A DNA stretch of 64,000 bases, taken from positions 1,178,001 through 1,242,000 of the forward strand of contig NZ_LT906662.1 in NCBI RefSeq assembly GCF_900205865.1. The letters run 5' to 3'. Position 1 is the stretch's first letter; each line of letters begins with the position of its first letter. Origin of the DNA: Thermoanaerobacterium sp. RBIITD. Lineage in GTDB: Bacteria; Bacillota; Thermoanaerobacteria; Thermoanaerobacterales; Thermoanaerobacteraceae. The notes under the pieces are model-generated. The model did no database searches. It saw only the letters and a list, made by a program, of their open reading frames with translations, and was not told where the DNA came from. Both the position numbers and the translations under genes were made by a program. Below, in pieces: positions 10,567 to 46,627 of the stretch.

Positions 10567-12351
10567 CTATGCACCTTCATTTAAGAATTTATACTGCGAC
10601 ATATAAAGATTATAATAAAGGCCTCTAAGTCTCATAAGTTCATTATGGGTACCTGTCTCTACAATTCTTCCACCTTCAACCACCATTATCTTGTCGCAGT
10701 CCCTTGTTGTAGATAGTCTGTGAGCAATTACAAAAGAGGTTCTGCCCTTAAGCAATTTACTTATGCCCCTTTGTACAAGCCTCTCTGTCTGTGTATCAAT
10801 ATTTGAGGTCGCTTCATCAAGTATCAATATCCTAGGATTTGCAAGCAGTGCCCTTGCAAAGGATATAAGCTGCCTCTGCCCGACAGATAGCCTTGATCCC
10901 CTTTCATTTACTTCCGTATCATAGCCTTTTTCCATCTTCATAATAAAATCGTGGGCATTTACGGCTTTTGCCGCAGCGATGACTTCCTCATCTGTCGCAT
11001 CAAGTCTGCCATATCTTATATTCTCCTTAATAGTCGCCGAAAACAAAAATGTGTCTTGAAGCATTATACCCATCTGGCTTCTCAATGACTCTAACTCAAC
11101 ATTTTTAACATTTCTCCCGTCTATGAGAACATCACCACTTTTAGAATCATAAAAGCGGCTAATAAGGTTCACAATCGTTGTTTTGCCTGCACCTGTAGGG
11201 CCAACTAGTGCTACAGTTTCACCAGGCTTAACTTTAAAGCTCACATTATCTAAGACAGTTGTCCCATCTTCATAACCAAAAGTCACATTTTTAAACTCCA
11301 CAGTTCCTTTTATTTTCGGCATCTTAACCGCATTATTGATATCTATGATATCAGGCTTAATGTCCATTATCTCAAATATTCTTTCCGCAGATGCAAAGGA
11401 CATTATGAGGCTGTTGTAGAAATTGCTTATATCGAGAATAGGCCTCCAAAACATACCTATATACATAGTAAATGCAATAATTGTACCTATTGTTAAGCCG
11501 TCATTCATCAATTTTGAACTGTACCAATATAAAAGAACTACGCCAAATCCATACGATGTATCCACCATAGGCCAGAATAAGTCGTTAAGCTTTACCGCAT
11601 GTACAAACCCATTCATCATATCTTTTACCAAGCCAAAGAAGGTATCAGATGTCCTCTTTTCATTAGCAAATGCCTGAACGACTTTTATGCCTGAAAAGTC
11701 TTCATGTGTATAGGCATTAAATGTCGAACGCTTCCTTCTAAAATTCTGCCATCTTCTCCTGGAAAATGTTTCTATTGAAAAAAGTCCTATAACAAGTATC
11801 GGCAGCAACGTTATTGAAGCTAGTGCCAGTTTAGTATTTAAATAAAACATCATCAATCCAACACAGATTACTGTTAAAAGCTGTGGGATAAAATTCGTTA
11901 CACTATTGTTAAATAAATCTTGAAGAGAATTGACATCGCCAATTACCCTCGCCAAAATCTTGCCAACAGGCCTGCTGTCGAAAAAAGAAAATGAAAGCTT
12001 TTGGATGTGGCTGTAAAGTTCATGCCTTATCCTTACCAATATATCATTCGTCACAGAAGCCATCTTGACTATTCTTGTCTTAGATGCCAGCATCGAAAGA
12101 AAATTTATCGAAACCATAAACGCACCAATAAGTAAAAGTCCTTTTATATCATTGTTTTTAACATTTTTGTCGATAGCTATCTTTAAAAGAAGCGGATTTA
12201 TAAGATTGACAAACATCTCAAAGATTAAAAGCAATATTACTAAAAATACTTTTAATTTATATTTTTTTAGATAGCTAAACAACCTTTCGATGATGACAAT
12301 ATTCGACATCCGTCTTAAATCTTCATCTTGTTTTACTGTATTTTTCGCCAT
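10567..12351 (-). CDS. ABC exporter subunit with canonical catalytic glutamate (heterodimer half B)
   Basis: The 594-residue fused permease-ATPase has six membrane segments in the first 320 residues, then an ATPase with Walker A GPTGAGKTT, signature LSVGQRQL, and Walker B ILILDEATSNID retaining the catalytic glutamate. The gene starts 30 bases after its partner ends, with GGAGGAGT before ATG. The partner has DDATS, so the two would form an asymmetric heterodimer like BmrCD of Bacillus subtilis or TM287/288, which export drugs. The signature is LSVGQ rather than LSGGQ. Multidrug export is inferred from family and from the attenuator-like leader. Confidence 0.88.
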   Translation of the reverse strand: MAKNTVKQDEDLRRMSNIVIIERLFSYLKKYKLKVFLVILLLIFEMFVNLINPLLLKIAIDKNVKNNDIKGLLLIGAFMVSINFLSMLASKTRIVKMASVTNDILVRIRHELYSHIQKLSFSFFDSRPVGKILARVIGDVNSLQDLFNNSVTNFIPQLLTVICVGLMMFYLNTKLALASITLLPILVIGLFSIETFSRRRWQNFRRKRSTFNAYTHEDFSGIKVVQAFANEKRTSDTFFGLVKDMMNGFVHAVKLNDLFWPMVDTSYGFGVVLLYWYSSKLMNDGLTIGTIIAFTMYIGMFWRPILDISNFYNSLIMSFASAERIFEIMDIKPDIIDINNAVKMPKIKGTVEFKNVTFGYEDGTTVLDNVSFKVKPGETVALVGPTGAGKTTIVNLISRFYDSKSGDVLIDGRNVKNVELESLRSQMGIMLQDTFLFSATIKENIRYGRLDATDEEVIAAAKAVNAHDFIMKMEKGYDTEVNERGSRLSVGQRQLISFARALLANPRILILDEATSNIDTQTERLVQRGISKLLKGRTSFVIAHRLSTTRDCDKIMVVEGGRIVETGTHNELMRLRGLYYNLYMSQYKFLNEGA

Positions 12352-12381: not shown

Positions 12382-14136
12382 TCATTCAACAGTGCACATA
12401 TCATATGATTCATCATCTAAATCAGAGAAATCTTTAAATTGTTCACAGTATATTTCGTAATATTTCCCTTTTTTCGCTAATAGTTCCTCATGTGTACCTC
12501 TTTCGACAATTCGTCCATCTTCCATGTAGATTATCATATCTGAATTCTTCACAGCCGATATTCTGTGAGCAATTATGAATGTCGTTGCATCTTTGTGCCT
12601 CTCATTTAGGTTTTTCAAAAGTCGGTATTCGGTATCCATATCAAGTGCAGATGTAGCATCATCGAGTATCAGTATTTTCGCATCCCTTATAAGTGCCCTT
12701 GCAATTGATATCCTCTGCTTTTGACCGCCTGATAATCCGATACCCCTTTCGCCAATCACTGTATCGTATTTATCATCAAGTTCCTCTATGAAATCATCTA
12801 CACATGCGAGTTTACATGCATCAACGATTTCATCCATTGTTGCATCAGGCTTTCCAAACTTTATGTTTTCTTCAATGCTGGCTGAAAATAAGAATGTGTC
12901 CTGCTGGACAACCGCCATTTGGCTTCTTAAATCTTCAAGGTTTATCTCTCTTACATCATGTCCATCAATATATATTGCACCGTCTAAAACGTCATAGTAT
13001 CTTCCAATCAAATTGATGATAGATGATTTTCCTGATCCTGTTGTACCCATTATTGCGACTGTCTTTCCTGCGTCTACCTTTAGATTAATATCTTTAAGCA
13101 CTAATTCGTCATTGTATCTAAATGACACATTTCTAAACTCTATATCACCTTTTAGATTATCTAGCCTTACCGAATTCGCACTATCTCTAATCTCTGGCAC
13201 CACGTCCATGATTTTCATAATCTTTTTTGCCGATGCATCTGACTGTGCTATTAAATTTGTCAAAAATCCCAGCATTCTCATTGGCCATATCAGCATGTAT
13301 ATATAACCGCTAAAGGCTACTAATTCTCCAATAGACAATGTAGAGTGTATTACAAGTACTCCGCCTAATACTACTAATATAACGATTGAGAGATTCGTGA
13401 GAAAATCAATCGGCGGAAAATACCTTGATACTATTCTGTTTTGTTCCATGCTTAACTCAAAATTCTCGTTATTTAAATTTAAAAACTTCATTATCTCATA
13501 TTTTTCCCTTGCAAAAGCTTTTACAAGCCTTACACCTGCTATATTTTCCTGTGCCGCCGTATTCATTAGCACCCCTTGGTCACTGAGTTTTCCATAGGAT
13601 ATGCCTATTTTTTTCTCAAACTGTAGTGCAAGATAACCAATTAGTGGCATACCAGCAAGGCAAACAAATGTCAGCTTCCAGTTTATAAGGAACAAGATTA
13701 CAGATGCTGTAACAAAATAAATCATGTTTTCGATAAATAGCCTTATTCCAAATGAGACGCTTCTCCATATATTGTCAACATCCTCACCTATTCTCGACAT
13801 AAGCTCACCTGTATTCATGCTGTCAAAGTAACTAAAAGGAAGACTTTGTATGTGGTCGAAAAGGTCCTTCTTTATATCTATGCTTATCTTTGCTGAAAGT
13901 ACATCAAATATATACTCCTTCACATACCCAAGCACAGCCCTTAAAACCGTAATTGCAATAAATCCCCACAGTATAGGCCATAATAAGCTTTTATTTCCGC
14001 CTATAAATACTTTATCAGTTATAAGCTCCTGAAGATATGGATTAAACATATCAAGAGCAATTGCAAGTATCATCGCAATAGTTGGTATTATAACGTGCCA
14101 CTTGTACCTTAAAACATATTTTAAAACTCTGCTCAA
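12382..14136 (-). CDS. ABC exporter subunit with degenerate Walker B (heterodimer half A)
   Basis: A fused permease-ATPase of 584 residues. The start is TTG 14136, preceded by a six-G Shine-Dalgarno at 14142-14147; an ATG reading from 14250 would run through the terminator hairpin and is rejected. Walker A is GTTGSGKSS, the signature is canonical LSGGQKQR, and Walker B ends ILILDDATSALD, with aspartate in place of the catalytic glutamate. That marks this subunit as carrying the degenerate ATP site of a heterodimeric type IV exporter. It is first in the operon, behind the leader at 14137-14460, as bmrC is behind bmrB. Confidence 0.88.
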   Translation of the reverse strand: MSRVLKYVLRYKWHVIIPTIAMILAIALDMFNPYLQELITDKVFIGGNKSLLWPILWGFIAITVLRAVLGYVKEYIFDVLSAKISIDIKKDLFDHIQSLPFSYFDSMNTGELMSRIGEDVDNIWRSVSFGIRLFIENMIYFVTASVILFLINWKLTFVCLAGMPLIGYLALQFEKKIGISYGKLSDQGVLMNTAAQENIAGVRLVKAFAREKYEIMKFLNLNNENFELSMEQNRIVSRYFPPIDFLTNLSIVILVVLGGVLVIHSTLSIGELVAFSGYIYMLIWPMRMLGFLTNLIAQSDASAKKIMKIMDVVPEIRDSANSVRLDNLKGDIEFRNVSFRYNDELVLKDINLKVDAGKTVAIMGTTGSGKSSIINLIGRYYDVLDGAIYIDGHDVREINLEDLRSQMAVVQQDTFLFSASIEENIKFGKPDATMDEIVDACKLACVDDFIEELDDKYDTVIGERGIGLSGGQKQRISIARALIRDAKILILDDATSALDMDTEYRLLKNLNERHKDATTFIIAHRISAVKNSDMIIYMEDGRIVERGTHEELLAKKGKYYEIYCEQFKDFSDLDDESYDMCTVE

Positions 14137-14149
14137 AAATATCCCCCCT

Positions 14150-14193
14150 AAGAAAATAAAGACTGTACAAGAACATAGTCTTATACAGTCTTT
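14150..14193 (-). terminator. Leader terminator of the ABC exporter operon
   Basis: Perfect 10-base inverted repeat AAAGACTGTA (14158-14167) / TACAGTCTTT (14184-14193) with a 16-base loop. It is followed on the minus strand by TTTATTTTCTT. It ends just before the six-G Shine-Dalgarno of the exporter gene, so it would stop transcription before the coding region. Confidence 0.75.
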
Positions 14194-14373
14194 TTTAAGC
14201 AAACTTTGATACACAATAATTATATGTGCAATTATTGCGTATAAAGGCAAAGATCGTGTTGGACTGTGTTCTTAAACAATTTAAAGTACAGCAAACAAAG
14301 CCAATAAATTACCATAAATTTACGGCTTCAAATTAAAATGCCATACTTATCACGCCATTTTCAGTTTAATGGC

Positions 14374-14400
14374 TTATTTAAGAACACCCTTAATCATCAC
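14374..14400 (-). CDS. Leader peptide MMIKGVLK of the ABC exporter attenuator
   Basis: The ORF is GTG ATG ATT AAG GGT GTT CTT AAA TAA, with AAAGGAAAG (14404-14412) six bases before the GTG; a start at the ATG one codon later is equally possible. It lies about 24 bases from the predicted transcription start. Its last codons (GTT CTT AAA) form the pairing segment that would be covered by a ribosome stalled there. It resembles leader peptides that sense ribosome-targeting antibiotics. It is too short for family comparison. Confidence 0.55.
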   Translation of the reverse strand: MMIKGVLK

Positions 14401-14430
14401 AATCTTTCCTTTCAAAGAGAAACTACAGAT

Positions 14431-14460
14431 ATTATACCATTCAGGACAAAACAATTGCAA
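14431..14460 (-). promoter_or_regulatory. Promoter of the ABC exporter leader
   Basis: The -35 box is TTGCAA (14455-14460) and the -10 box is a consensus TATAAT (14431-14436), 18 bases apart on the minus strand. Predicted transcription start is near 14424. Confidence 0.65.
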
Positions 14461-14490: not shown

Positions 14491-14724
14491 TCAGCTTTCT
14501 TTGTATTCAAAAACTGGAACTTCGATTGTCTTTACAGGCTTTTTCTCATAAAAATACTCATCAAGTTTTAGTGATGTATCTGCATCAAAATACCTTTCAC
14601 CACATTCTACACATTCCAATACTGGTACATGCTCGATAACAATAAGCTTATCATTTACCCATTTTTCTATTCTCGTCTCTTTCTTTTCCAATTTACCACC
14701 ACATTTAAAGCACCTGTCATTCAT
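14491..14724 (-). CDS. YgiT/MqsA-type zinc-finger antitoxin
   Basis: The product is 77 residues long when started at ATG 14724, which has a near-perfect AAAGGAGGT site inside the end of the toxin gene. Two CxxC pairs (CFKCGG at the N-terminus and CVECGE near residue 46) form the zinc finger of the YgiT-type family. The helix-turn-helix DNA-binding domain of full MqsA is absent. It overlaps the upstream DUF4258 gene by 8 bases, the usual toxin-first order of MqsR/MqsA-like and DUF4258/YgiT pairs. With the toxin apparently frameshifted, the antitoxin may be a relic. Confidence 0.8.
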   Translation of the reverse strand: MNDRCFKCGGKLEKKETRIEKWVNDKLIVIEHVPVLECVECGERYFDADTSLKLDEYFYEKKPVKTIEVPVFEYKES

Positions 14725-15041
14725 GATATTTACCTCCTTTTGTTCTTTCATTAATCCATTTTGGTGGTTCCGGAATATACGAAGTTATTATAACCAAACT
14801 CTTATTTTGAAAACCGCAAACCGTATGTACATATTTATCATCTTTCTTTCCTAATATAAGACAGCTATGGCCTCTTGGATCATCAGGATAATCCTCTAAG
14901 ATTTCTCCATTTAATATAGAAGTTAAAACATCAACAATCCTTAAGTTTCGCTCAAGTAGTTTGTCTAAAGCATGTTCACTCAATAACCATTGACCCTTTT
15001 AATATAAACTTCTTAATATTTTTTATATCAAAATCACTCAT
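14717..15041 (-). pseudogene. DUF4258-family toxin gene with a frameshift near its start
   Basis: From ATG 15041 (site AGGGTGA) the reading frame gives 21 residues, MSDFDIKNIKKFILKGSMVIE, then TGA at 14976-14978. In the next frame the family-typical SEHALDKLLERN continues for about 88 residues to 14717 with DDPRGHSCLILG and VIITSYIPEPPKW. A single extra G near 14981-14984 explains the break: removing it joins GSMVI directly to SEHALDK, as in intact members. The downstream frame could begin only at a TTG at 14983 with poor site spacing, giving a protein lacking the first strand. Members are predicted RNases, MqsR/RelE-like. A sequencing error is the alternative. Confidence 0.7.
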
Positions 15042-15162: not shown

Positions 15163-15890
15163 TCAAGATATTTTCTTTTTCAAAAGCCCTATCATCAAAG
15201 CTGTCACAACCATGCCAACAAGTATTGCCACGATGTACAAAAGCGGATTTGATACAGCGATTGGTATTACGAATATCCCGCCGTGGGGTGCTCTAAGTTC
15301 AATGTGGAATAACATTGAAAGTGCACCTGTAACAGCTGAGCCTACCATAATTGATGGTATTACCCTAAAAGGATCAGCTGCTGCAAATGGTATTGCTCCT
15401 TCTGTAATAAATGATGCACCAAGCACCCAAGCAGCCTTGCCAGCTTCTACTTCTTCCTTAGTAAATCTGTTTTTGAACAATACTGTTGCAAGAGCAAGTC
15501 CAAGCGGTGGAGTCATTCCCGCTGCCATTGCCGCTGCTTAGCCAAAATTTTTAGATGTAGATTGTCTGAATTCTCAGGTGCCGCAATCAGGAAAAACAGG
15601 TGTGCCGGTTTTCCATCCATCGAATCGTAGTCTATCCCCTCCTTTGATTTTCCAAATACTAATGCTGCTCTTTTTACAAGGCTGCTTTTCCCATGTGGAA
15701 TAGCTATGCCCATGCCAATTCCTGTCGTATATTCTTCTTCTCTTTTTAACACAACATCCAAAAATTTATCAGAATCTGTAACTATACCCTTCGACACTAA
15801 TAGATTTATCAGCTCCTTTAAAACAGATAGCTTATCCTTTGACTTAAGGTCGAATATCATCATATCTTTATCAAGTATTTTTTCTATCAT
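15163..15890 (-). pseudogene. fruA: Fructose PTS permease gene fruA with an internal deletion
   Basis: The 5' part (15513-15890) encodes residues 1-117 of a fructose EIIA domain, with the phosphorylatable histidine H66 in GIAIPHGKS, then a nonsense tail KQRQWQRE. The 3' part (15163 to about 15537) encodes the last ~125 residues of the fructose EIIC membrane domain ([32 protein letters not shown]). The EIIA end, whole EIIB and first two thirds of EIIC are missing, roughly 1.1 kb compared with a normal ~620-residue EIIABC. The two parts meet near 15533-15542 in different frames. The product cannot take up fructose; assembly collapse is possible. Confidence 0.85.
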
Positions 15891-43562: not shown

Positions 43563-46160
43563 TTATTGTTTTGTTTTTACTGTAAACATAATTGTGGTCG
43601 GTGTACTTAATGTTTGTTTTGTTTCAGCATTCACTAATTCAAGTTGAAGTTTGTAGTTTCCTGGATTAGCGATAGTTGCTTTAAAGATTGTCGTAATTCC
43701 ATCATTTAGGCCTATCTGGTTAATATTAAAACCACTTGCTGGGCCAAAATATGCTACACCACCGGAATCAGTAGTAAATGGTTGCCAGCTATCACCAACT
43801 TTATAATATATAACTTGATTAGGTACTCCATACGTATCATCATATGTAGTGCCATATGTCGTATCTGCAACAGTCAATGTTGCTTTATATAAAGCATAAA
43901 CATCATCCGTTACATTATTGGTTTTTGCTGTTATACTAAATTGATTTTCTTCACCAGCGACAAAATCATCAAAGCCGTTGCAGTTAAATGACATTGGTTG
44001 TACATCTAACTCTCCAAAATAGCTTCCAATAAGTTTAGAATTGTAATTCGAACTATCATATAAATCAATATATACATAATATTGATTTACTTTATTTACC
44101 CGTACCCTAAATTTTGTAGTTTCGTTGTAGTTGTCACTCACTGTAAAACCTTCTGTCGGGCCAAATGTTCCGTATACCTCATTGTAAGTTGTTCTTTCAT
44201 ACATAGGTACATCGAACCATTTACCATTATCATTATATTGCAGTGATATATCATTGGTGCTTATTGGTAAATTATAATTTGACCACACGTCATATTGGAT
44301 TTTCACATTATCATATTTTATGCCGTTTTTAGTATTATTTATATTTACATTAAAATTACTATATAAGCCCATTGTTGATATGCTTAGATCGCTATTAATC
44401 TCTATTGGGGCAGTCTTTGCATCAAGTTCAAATATAGTTGAAAGTGGATTACCATAAGTATCTGCTACAAGATAATATATTTTATAGTTTGTATTTGCGT
44501 TTAAATTTCGCTTTGAAATAACCGATGCTCTATCTTTTACAATCACATCATAACCATAACTTTGCTTTATTAATTCATCTATACTAGGTTTTGTGTTATT
44601 TGGTAATTTTGCAATTGAATATATTCTTCCATTAAATTTAGGCTTATTTATAAAAAATTCTATATAATTTGATCCAAAAACACCAATGTACGGTGAACCT
44701 TCATCAAAAAAGTCTAAAAGATTTTGTGATAAATTATTACTACCACCGCTGATACCACTGCCAGTGCTTCCTGTACTCCCCGTACTTGGTACTGTAACAT
44801 TTTGTCCACCAATTGTTGCTGTTACGCCACTTGCTATATTAGTATTAGCCGGTTTTTGTTCTATTGTTACACCATTCGCATTGATATTTGCTATCTCTAT
44901 AGAACCTTTCCCTGTGACAGATACGGCTACATTTGCCTCAAGTATTGATACTTTTGCACCTTCTGCTATGTCTATTTTTGCATCTTTTGCGGTATCACTT
45001 ACTGTTATGTTATTAACTATTCCACTCGCTACACTTACAGATACACCTGGCACATTAACTTTTACGTTGTCAAAGTTTCCTGATAGTACTATCTCCGTAC
45101 CTGCTGGCAATGTCCCTTCTATTGTTACATTTGAGAATCCTTTATCAGTTGTATTATCTTCTTCAAGCTTTGCACCTGATTGTAAACTTACTGAATCAGC
45201 TTTTGTTGAACCTTGTGCAACAACTCTTACCTTTCCATCTTCTTTTCTTACAACTACTTTTGCTAATATACAATTATCAAATACTATGCTGTGTTCTCCA
45301 CCGCCATTAACAGTGACTGTACCGTTTATAGTGACGTTCTTTAATGTAACATTGCCATTACCTACTGCTTTGTCAATTAATAAATTACCATTAATGATTG
45401 TATTTTGCAATATTACATCTGGTGCAGATATTAAAACATCACTATTGATTGTACTAGTACCTGTTTCTGGGCCATATGTACCTGCTTTATCATATGATAC
45501 TGCCGAGGTTTGTTTTGATTGTTCAATTAATGCCCTATTGAGTAATACTATTGTTTCTGCTCTCGTTATTTGTTTTGTTGGTCCTAATGTATTATCTCCA
45601 TAACCTGCTAATAATCCATTTGCTACTGCTGCATTTACTGAATTCCTACTCCAATCGGAAATCTGCGATAAATCTTTAAAACTTTTTAATACATCTTGGC
45701 TTGACGGTTGTAATTTCAGCAATCTTACAACTATCGCAGCAGCTTCCTCCCTTGTTATGGGATTATTTGGTCTTACGGTATTATCATTATAACCATCTAT
45801 AAGATTCGAAGCTTTGGCTTTTTGTATGTCTGCATAGAACCAATCTGATAATTTTACATCTTTAAAGCTTATATCGGTTGTTTGTGTCAATTTAAAGCTT
45901 CTATCTATAAACGTTACAAACTCTGCTCTTGTGACTGGATTATCTGGCTTAAATGTATTGTCTTCATATCCGCTAACTAATCCCTTTGCTACCCAATCAT
46001 TTATATCATTTTCTGCCCAATGTCCTTTGACATCGGTAAATTGTTTTGCATCGGATGTAGAATTTGTATCGGCAAATCCAGTAACAGCAATACTCGGTAT
46101 TAACATTAATACTGCAGTTATCAATGCTAATATTTTTGAAAAACGAGTTTTAGTGTTCAT
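43563..46160 (-). CDS. SLH-domain surface protein, putatively cyclic-di-GMP controlled
   Basis: The 865-residue exported protein has a signal peptide (about 1-31) and three N-terminal SLH repeats (about 36-220) with good wall-binding motifs VTRAE, ITREE and ITRAE. Residues about 235-420 look like a parallel beta-helix rich in short strands (INGNLLIDKAVGNGNVTLKN, INGTVTVNGGG). A Ser/Gly linker follows, then ~390 residues of Ig-like beta modules. It is probably an adhesin-like wall protein. GGGGGAAT precedes the ATG. The leader is more than 300 bases and contains the riboswitch and terminator at 46389-46482. Confidence 0.85.
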   Translation of the reverse strand: MNTKTRFSKILALITAVLMLIPSIAVTGFADTNSTSDAKQFTDVKGHWAENDINDWVAKGLVSGYEDNTFKPDNPVTRAEFVTFIDRSFKLTQTTDISFKDVKLSDWFYADIQKAKASNLIDGYNDNTVRPNNPITREEAAAIVVRLLKLQPSSQDVLKSFKDLSQISDWSRNSVNAAVANGLLAGYGDNTLGPTKQITRAETIVLLNRALIEQSKQTSAVSYDKAGTYGPETGTSTINSDVLISAPDVILQNTIINGNLLIDKAVGNGNVTLKNVTINGTVTVNGGGEHSIVFDNCILAKVVVRKEDGKVRVVAQGSTKADSVSLQSGAKLEEDNTTDKGFSNVTIEGTLPAGTEIVLSGNFDNVKVNVPGVSVSVASGIVNNITVSDTAKDAKIDIAEGAKVSILEANVAVSVTGKGSIEIANINANGVTIEQKPANTNIASGVTATIGGQNVTVPSTGSTGSTGSGISGGSNNLSQNLLDFFDEGSPYIGVFGSNYIEFFINKPKFNGRIYSIAKLPNNTKPSIDELIKQSYGYDVIVKDRASVISKRNLNANTNYKIYYLVADTYGNPLSTIFELDAKTAPIEINSDLSISTMGLYSNFNVNINNTKNGIKYDNVKIQYDVWSNYNLPISTNDISLQYNDNGKWFDVPMYERTTYNEVYGTFGPTEGFTVSDNYNETTKFRVRVNKVNQYYVYIDLYDSSNYNSKLIGSYFGELDVQPMSFNCNGFDDFVAGEENQFSITAKTNNVTDDVYALYKATLTVADTTYGTTYDDTYGVPNQVIYYKVGDSWQPFTTDSGGVAYFGPASGFNINQIGLNDGITTIFKATIANPGNYKLQLELVNAETKQTLSTPTTIMFTVKTKQ

Positions 46161-46388: not shown

Positions 46389-46416
46389 AAAAAACCGCAG
46401 TACAAATATACTACGG
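46389..46416 (-). terminator. Terminator of the riboswitch expression platform
   Basis: CCGCAGTA (46395-46402) / TACTACGG (46409-46416) with one G-U pair and a 6-base loop, followed by six T on the minus strand. Its 5' arm overlaps the 3' end of the aptamer. Confidence 0.85.
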
Positions 46417-46482
46417 CCGGTTGCACCATTATCTTCATTTAACCCAGGTGCCCAGATACAGGTTAAATATCATCGATTCCTC
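46412..46482 (-). promoter_or_regulatory. Cyclic-di-GMP-II riboswitch aptamer
   Basis: On the minus strand the order is GGAATCGATGAT, a long hairpin with arms ATTTAACC / GGTTAAAT, CTGGGCACC in its loop, then GGTGCAACCGGCCG (46414-46427). GCACC and GGTGC form the pseudoknot. From memory, the class II cyclic-di-GMP aptamer of Clostridium acetobutylicum has GGAAACAAUGAUG, UUGGGCAC and GUGCAACCGACCG in the same order. It is followed directly by a terminator and then the SLH gene. The overlap of terminator and closing-stem sequence suggests ligand binding prevents termination, an ON switch. That direction is inference. Confidence 0.85.
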
Positions 46483-46627
46483 TTCTATATTTTTCTATTT
46501 TTCTATATATTTCTATATTCGACGTTAAATTTAATTTTCCTGCAAGATTTTAATAAAATTTTACAAAATATTTCACAGTACAAAACATTAATAGAAAATA
46601 AAATATTTATTGTGGTATTCCTTAATA

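What the first reader, a model, noticed from the sequence alone, without database searches (positions are those of the whole stretch)
14137..14460. Ribosome-controlled attenuator upstream of a heterodimeric ABC exporter
The leader has a promoter, an 8-codon ORF with good ribosome site, a segment inside that ORF (14377-14387) perfectly complementary to 14266-14276, and that second segment (14262-14273) also complementary 11/12 to the loop of a U-run terminator (14169-14180). The terminator ends right before the exporter start. These are the three mutually exclusive pairings of classical attenuation. A ribosome stalled on the leader ORF would free segment 2 to open the terminator. Bacillus subtilis bmrCD, encoding the same exporter type, is known to be controlled by translation of bmrB with antibiotics as inducers. 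The leader here is different in sequence and much shorter.
Basis: partly seen in the sequence, partly recalled or inferred. Interest (0 to 1): 0.82.

Follow-up and report, generated by a model that had tools for sequence, protein, structure and literature searches.

The report
Ribosome-sensing switch before exporter genes
In nine heat-loving Thermoanaerobacterium species, the RNA ahead of a two-part drug-type export pump carries a tiny conserved reading frame and three competing RNA pairings, so that a ribosome stuck on the tiny frame should let the pump genes be transcribed; this is a clean new example of a known kind of antibiotic-responsive switch.

Summary
The minus-strand leader (about 14425-14137) of a TM287/288-type heterodimeric ABC exporter has a promoter, a leader ORF (GTG ATG..., (M)MIKGVLK*), a perfect 11-nt complement between ORF and segment 2, an 11/12 complement between segment 2 and the terminator apex, and a 15-bp terminator. 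The leader occurs in all nine Thermoanaerobacterium genomes and was not found elsewhere. The ORF-internal segment, the terminator 5' half and the ORF-pairing core of segment 2 are invariant, while linkers diverge. Folding at 55 C, just before the terminator closes, gives ORF:segment-2 pairing (P 0.99) without a ribosome; a ribosome footprint on codons 2-5 switches it to a long antiterminator in all nine species (P 0.59-0.96). No linker shuffle (0/200) reproduces this. Best explanation: ribosome-mediated transcription attenuation, like B. subtilis vmlR and bmrBCD, probably sensing early-elongation or initiation inhibitors. No expression data exist here, so antibiotic induction is inferred. Orthologous exporters in Clostridium often have unrelated leader ORFs and terminators. 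New member of a known kind.

The parts
14431..14460 (-). sigma-A-type promoter (TTGCAA, 18 nt, TATAAT, TG before the -10)
   Evidence: conserved in nine species
14405..14412 (-). leader ribosome-binding site AAAGGAAA; also 5' half of the extended anti-antiterminator
   Evidence: invariant in nine species
14374..14400 (-). leader ORF (M)MIKGVLK*, GTG or ATG start
   Evidence: intact in all nine species; changes are GTG/ATG at the first codon, a synonymous Lys codon change, and Ile to Leu in G001
14377..14387 (-). segment 1: inside the ORF, pairs with segment 2 (anti-antiterminator core)
   Evidence: 11/11 invariant; P 0.99 at 55 C without ribosome
14284..14373 (-). spacer domain of hairpins between segments 1 and 2 (14373-14354; 14348-14284 with 14330-14296 inside)
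   Evidence: only 57% of columns invariant over 14373-14280; compensatory changes in the 14348-14284 helix
14243..14279 (-). segment 2: pairs with leader ribosome site and ORF, or with terminator 5' half
14204..14246 (-). inner hairpin enclosed by the antiterminator
   Evidence: varies in sequence, with single-sided and some compensatory changes
14169..14193 (-). segment 3: terminator 5' arm and apex, captured by segment 2 in the antiterminator
   Evidence: 14193-14179, the loop, and 14180-14169 invariant in nine species
14149..14193 (-). intrinsic terminator (15-bp stem 14193-14158, interrupted U tail)
14143..14149 (-). exporter Shine-Dalgarno AGGGGGG
12382..14136 (-). ABC exporter subunit 1 (TTG start); Walker B LDDATS lacks the usual catalytic Glu
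10567..12351 (-). ABC exporter subunit 2; Walker B LDEATS, non-consensus signature LSVGQ; closest single-subunit PDB match TM288, with BmrD also matched

Best explanation
A ribosome-mediated transcription attenuator for a heterodimeric ABC exporter. Without stress, a ribosome translates or leaves the 8-codon ORF quickly. Then segment 2, as it emerges, zips onto the ORF and its ribosome site, leaving the terminator free to form. If a ribosome is held on the first codons, segment 2 cannot pair there; it captures the 5' half of the terminator as RNA polymerase reaches it, and the exporter genes are transcribed. The peptide contains no run of one amino acid, so the likely signal is a drug that stalls initiating or early-elongating ribosomes, such as a lincosamide or pleuromutilin. 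Shown here: the parts, their conservation, and the computed switch. Inferred: termination in the cell, stalling, the inducing drug and the exporter's substrate.
For: All elements are present. The leader with ORF is kept in 9/9 Thermoanaerobacterium species at the same exporter, although the DNA upstream of the promoter differs between several of them. Segments 1 and 3 are 100% invariant, against 57% for the spacer and 35% for the inner hairpin. The switch is predicted in 9/9 species for a ribosome at codons 2-5: P(2:3) rises from 0.00 to 0.59-0.96 and P(1:2) falls from 0.99 to about 0. It holds at 37, 50 and 60 C in G000. 0/200 linker shuffles reach the observed change. A block of ribosome size flips the fold strongly only when placed over the leader ORF. 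The antiterminator hairpin is the favoured fold of its region in the four species printed.
Against: No transcript, termination or induction data. Key helices are invariant, so covariation cannot support them. The terminator tail is broken by A and C. Once the full terminator is transcribed it wins at equilibrium in every state, so the switch must be kinetic. In seven of nine species, a ribosome at the last codons is not predicted to open the switch.
Confidence: 0.77

Rival explanations
1. A metabolite- or drug-binding riboswitch: the spacer domain binds a ligand and the ORF is incidental.
For: Very stable structured leader (z -8.8) ending in a terminator before an exporter.
Against: No Rfam family matches at gathering score, and nothing convincing in the relaxed search. 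The spacer, where an aptamer would lie, is far less conserved than the ORF and pairing segments. The ORF, start and ribosome site are kept in all nine species.
Confidence: 0.06
2. Amino-acid-starvation attenuator (trp/his type), in which the peptide senses a charged tRNA.
For: Same three-way pairing logic.
Against: The peptide (M)MIKGVLK has no run of one amino acid beyond the start, only two separated Lys, and the regulated gene is an exporter, not a biosynthetic enzyme.
Confidence: 0.05
3. Plain terminator or constitutive basal attenuator: a conserved hairpin limits exporter expression, mutations raise it, but no ribosome sensing occurs (as described for S. pneumoniae patAB).
For: The terminator is convincing; patAB is controlled by such a terminator (PMC4319486).
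Against: Does not explain the invariant ORF, segment 1 and segment 2, or the computed switch in nine species.
Confidence: 0.08
4. Mainly translational control: the leader 5' end pairs with the exporter Shine-Dalgarno, and a ribosome on the leader frees it.
For: GUUUCUCUUUG at the 5' end is invariant and pairs with AGGGGGG in all nine folds (P any 0.87-0.95); vmlR combines both layers (PMC9226507).
Against: The helix is rich in G-U pairs; 19/200 shuffles of the 5' 16 nt do as well. The helix loosens only if the ribosome footprint reaches 22 nt upstream. It does not explain the terminator.
Confidence: 0.04

Closest known systems
vmlR leader of Bacillus subtilis (PMC9226507)
   Same: Short uORF inside an anti-antiterminator, a competing antiterminator and an intrinsic terminator; ribosome stalling on the uORF lets the antiterminator form; possible second layer at the main Shine-Dalgarno.
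   Different: Encodes an ABCF ribosome-protection factor; uORF of three codons (MIN); leader 219 nt. Here the uORF has 8 codons, the leader is about 290 nt, the gene is a membrane exporter, and the anti-antiterminator is predicted to cover the uORF's own ribosome site.
bmrB-bmrCD of Bacillus subtilis (PMC4191407)
   Same: Heterodimeric multidrug ABC exporter behind a leader ORF with terminator, antiterminator and anti-antiterminator; needs leader translation; induced by lincomycin, erythromycin and chloramphenicol.
   Different: bmrB is a 162-bp gene that contains the terminator; here the ORF has 8 codons, the terminator lies about 180 nt after its stop, and the leader peptide is unlike it. 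AbrB control not examined here.
mef(E)L and msrDL leaders (PMC4335068, PMC10314930)
   Same: Very short leader peptides (MTASMRLR, MYLIFM) controlling an intrinsic terminator ahead of macrolide resistance genes.
   Different: Different peptide and folds; macrolide-dependent arrest. MIKGVLK resembles neither peptide.
patAB terminator of Streptococcus pneumoniae (PMC4319486)
   Same: Intrinsic terminator ahead of a two-gene ABC exporter limits its transcription.
   Different: A ribosome-sensing leader ORF is not part of that paper's abstract.

Membership tests
Ribosome-mediated transcription attenuator | Promoter, translatable leader ORF and intrinsic terminator ahead of the gene | tested here: met
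   By sequence:
Ribosome-mediated transcription attenuator | Mutually exclusive anti-antiterminator, antiterminator and terminator pairings, the first overlapping the ORF | tested here: met
   By computed folds:
Ribosome-mediated transcription attenuator | Ribosome position on the ORF decides which pairing forms | tested here: met
   In silico only:
Ribosome-mediated transcription attenuator | Pairing segments conserved among relatives | tested here: met
   Invariant cores in nine species; covariation not testable because invariant
Ribosome-mediated transcription attenuator | Premature termination relieved by an inducer, dependent on leader translation | not testable with these tools
   No expression data
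bmrB-bmrCD type | Downstream genes form a heterodimeric ABC exporter | tested here: met
   Two tandem ABC_membrane plus ABC_tran proteins with asymmetric ATPase motifs
bmrB-bmrCD type | Leader ORF of 162 bp that contains the terminator | tested here: not met
   ORF is 8 codons; terminator lies outside it (bmrB)
vmlR type | Gene controlled is an ABCF protein | tested here: not met
   Gene controlled is a membrane ABC exporter
Known Rfam riboswitch or leader | Match above the family gathering score | tested here: not met
Amino-acid attenuator | Run of regulatory codons for one amino acid | tested here: not met
   (M)MIKGVLK

The most novel reading that the evidence does not exclude
A one-shot attenuator: the anti-antiterminator covers not only the ORF but the leader's own ribosome site and start codons, so each transcript is interrogated by essentially one early ribosome and then locked off, giving a sensor tuned to drugs that hold ribosomes at the first codons. 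The exporter clade would have recruited unrelated leaders of this kind repeatedly.
Probability: 0.25. Interest if true: 0.55.

Novelty: new member of a known kind. Interest (0 to 1): 0.43.

Why it matters
It adds a well-conserved case of antibiotic-type ribosome sensing ahead of a heterodimeric exporter, in thermophiles outside the Bacilli, with a leader small enough to test completely. It suggests what the uncharacterised exporter does (drug export under translation stress) and makes a position-specific prediction: in seven of nine species, stalls at codons 2-5 induce and stalls at the end of the ORF do not.

Tried and rejected
Rfam, at gathering and relaxed thresholds: no leader family. Phage records: no match. 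IMG/VR exact pattern for the ORF core: none. DNA search of 37 genomes of the class and 398 of the phylum: only Thermoanaerobacterium; two weak short hits (E about 1e-3) disregarded as chance. Leaders of orthologous exporters in Clostridium and others were tested for the same ribosome switch with a simple occupancy measure; results were inconclusive. Exporter homologues at 42% identity or less mostly showed no leader or terminator directly upstream. Pairing of the exporter Shine-Dalgarno with the leader 5' end was examined as a second layer: consistent across species but not clearly above shuffles. A resemblance between the leader ORF and the terminator 5' half was scored against shuffles (49/5000) and not used as separate evidence, because any 1:2/2:3 design implies it. 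First alignment A1 had badly chosen ends and was replaced by A2.

Full report
WHERE. The window lies at 1178001-1242000 of a 3.40-Mb single-contig genome. Named matches to the exporter at 82-87% identity are Thermoanaerobacterium species, so the host is very probably a Thermoanaerobacterium. These organisms are thermophilic (own knowledge), so folding was repeated above 37 C.

OBSERVATION. The stated elements are all present on the minus strand: an extended -10 promoter (14460-14431); ribosome site AAAGGAAA; ORF GTG ATG ATT AAG GGT GTT CTT AAA TAA (14400-14374); the 11-nt perfect complement 14387-14377 with 14276-14266; the 11/12 complement 14273-14262 with 14180-14169; and a 15-bp terminator 14193-14158. 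An 11-nt perfect complement between ORF and linker occurs in 6 of 5000 dinucleotide shuffles. The whole leader folds 8.8 standard deviations below shuffles.

First, the pairing of the ORF with segment 2 extends upstream over the leader's own ribosome site and start codons: 14412-14395 with 14261-14243, 17 bp at 60 C, besides the 13-bp core. This extension is kept with G-U changes and one broken pair in the divergent species G007 and has two broken pairs in G001. Second, the antiterminator is larger than 12 nt: in G000, G001 and G003 segment 2 also pairs (ACGAUCUUU) with the lower 5' arm of the terminator, forming one long hairpin that encloses the hairpin 14246-14204. G007 forms the same outer stem with a different interior.

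CONSERVATION. The same leader precedes the same exporter in nine of nine species of the genus held, at 76-96% identity to the window's copy, and in none of the other 28 genomes of the class. A sample of 398 genomes of the phylum added only two weak short hits. The DNA upstream of the promoter is different in several of them, while promoter, leader and exporter stay together. Invariant columns: 11/11 in segment 1, 21/21 in the terminator 5' arm plus loop, 24/27 in the ORF; against 54/94 in the spacer and 12/34 in the inner hairpin. In the segment-2 stretch 14273-14262 the one variable base (A to G) keeps its pair with U as G-U. Because the key helices are invariant, covariation supports only the peripheral hairpins.

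SWITCH. The RNA was folded at the point where polymerase has made the terminator apex but not its 3' arm. Without a ribosome, P(1:2) is 0.99 in every species. With a footprint of -14 to +16 and the P site on codons 2-5, P(1:2) is about 0 and P(2:3) is 0.59-0.96 in all nine (55 C). In G000 it holds at 37, 50 and 60 C. A ribosome on the last codons leaves the ribosome-site helix free to form, which topologically blocks 2:3, except in G001 and G007. Shuffling the linker never reproduced the change (0/200). Moving the block elsewhere on the leader does not produce it; of the tested positions, only the one covering 14408-14378 gives a strong switch (0.95), with 0.13 at 14398-14368. Once the full terminator is present it dominates at equilibrium in all states, so the decision has to be made during transcription, as in known attenuators.

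GENE CONTROLLED. Two tandem proteins with ABC_membrane and ABC_tran domains. Subunit 1 has LDDATS at Walker B and a normal LSGGQ signature; subunit 2 has LDEATS and the non-consensus signature LSVGQ (read). This is the asymmetric arrangement of heterodimeric exporters (own knowledge). Among single-subunit chains, Sav1866 and TM287 are the best matches for subunit 1 and TM288 for subunit 2; BmrD (7m33_D, deposited as YheH) also matches subunit 2. The pair is thus of TM287/288 type. Substrates are unknown.

MECHANISM. I commit to ribosome-mediated transcription attenuation (0.77). The peptide (M)MIKGVLK has no run of one amino acid, so starvation sensing is unlikely. The predicted sensitive positions are the first codons, pointing to inhibitors of initiation or early elongation. 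vmlR, with its three-codon uORF, responds to lincomycin and its class of antibiotics, which stall initiating ribosomes (PMC9226507); bmrCD responds to lincomycin, erythromycin and chloramphenicol through leader translation (PMC4191407). The drug class for the present leader is inference.

WIDER SETTING. Orthologous exporters at about 48-77% identity in Clostridium and related genomes (L010, L011, L034, L036, L037) are preceded by unrelated, longer leader ORFs (26-54 codons) and terminators; L013 and L035 have a terminator but no clear ORF. Homologues at 42% or less mostly lack them. A simple fold test did not show a clear switch in those leaders, so repeated recruitment of leaders is only a suggestion.

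NOVELTY. No Rfam family, and no paper in the held library that combines Thermoanaerobacterium with attenuation and leader peptide. The kind of system is known; this is a new, well-conserved member, with the burial of the leader's own ribosome site as its most distinctive predicted trait.

Noticed in passing
window 14413-14422 and 14143-14149 (-): The invariant leader 5' end UUUCUCUUUG is predicted to pair with the exporter Shine-Dalgarno in all nine species (P 0.87-0.95), a possible translational second layer; 19/200 shuffles do as well.
   Followed up: partly
window 14274-14298 (-): TTGTTT (or TTATTT), matching the NusG pause consensus TTNTTT, about 20 nt before segment 2 in eight of nine species and again just before it in seven; vmlR uses such a pause.
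   Followed up: partly
L010, L011, L034, L036, L037 upstream of the exporter: Orthologous exporters carry unrelated leader ORFs of 26-54 codons and terminators, several with CCATGG-containing stems; possible attenuators of different origin.
   Followed up: partly
window 14491-14983 (-): Small gene pair just upstream: a DUF4258 protein and a CxxC protein resembling toxin-antitoxin partners; the upstream DNA is not shared by several sister species.
   Followed up: partly
window 15163-15890 (-): After the phosphofructokinase-like gene, a PTS EIIA domain is followed by what reads like only a C-terminal piece of a fructose EIIC: apparently a truncated fructose PTS gene.
   Followed up: no
window 46407-46489 (-): c-di-GMP-II riboswitch (65 bits) ahead of an 865-aa protein that looks like an S-layer-homology protein (43563-46160).
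   Followed up: no
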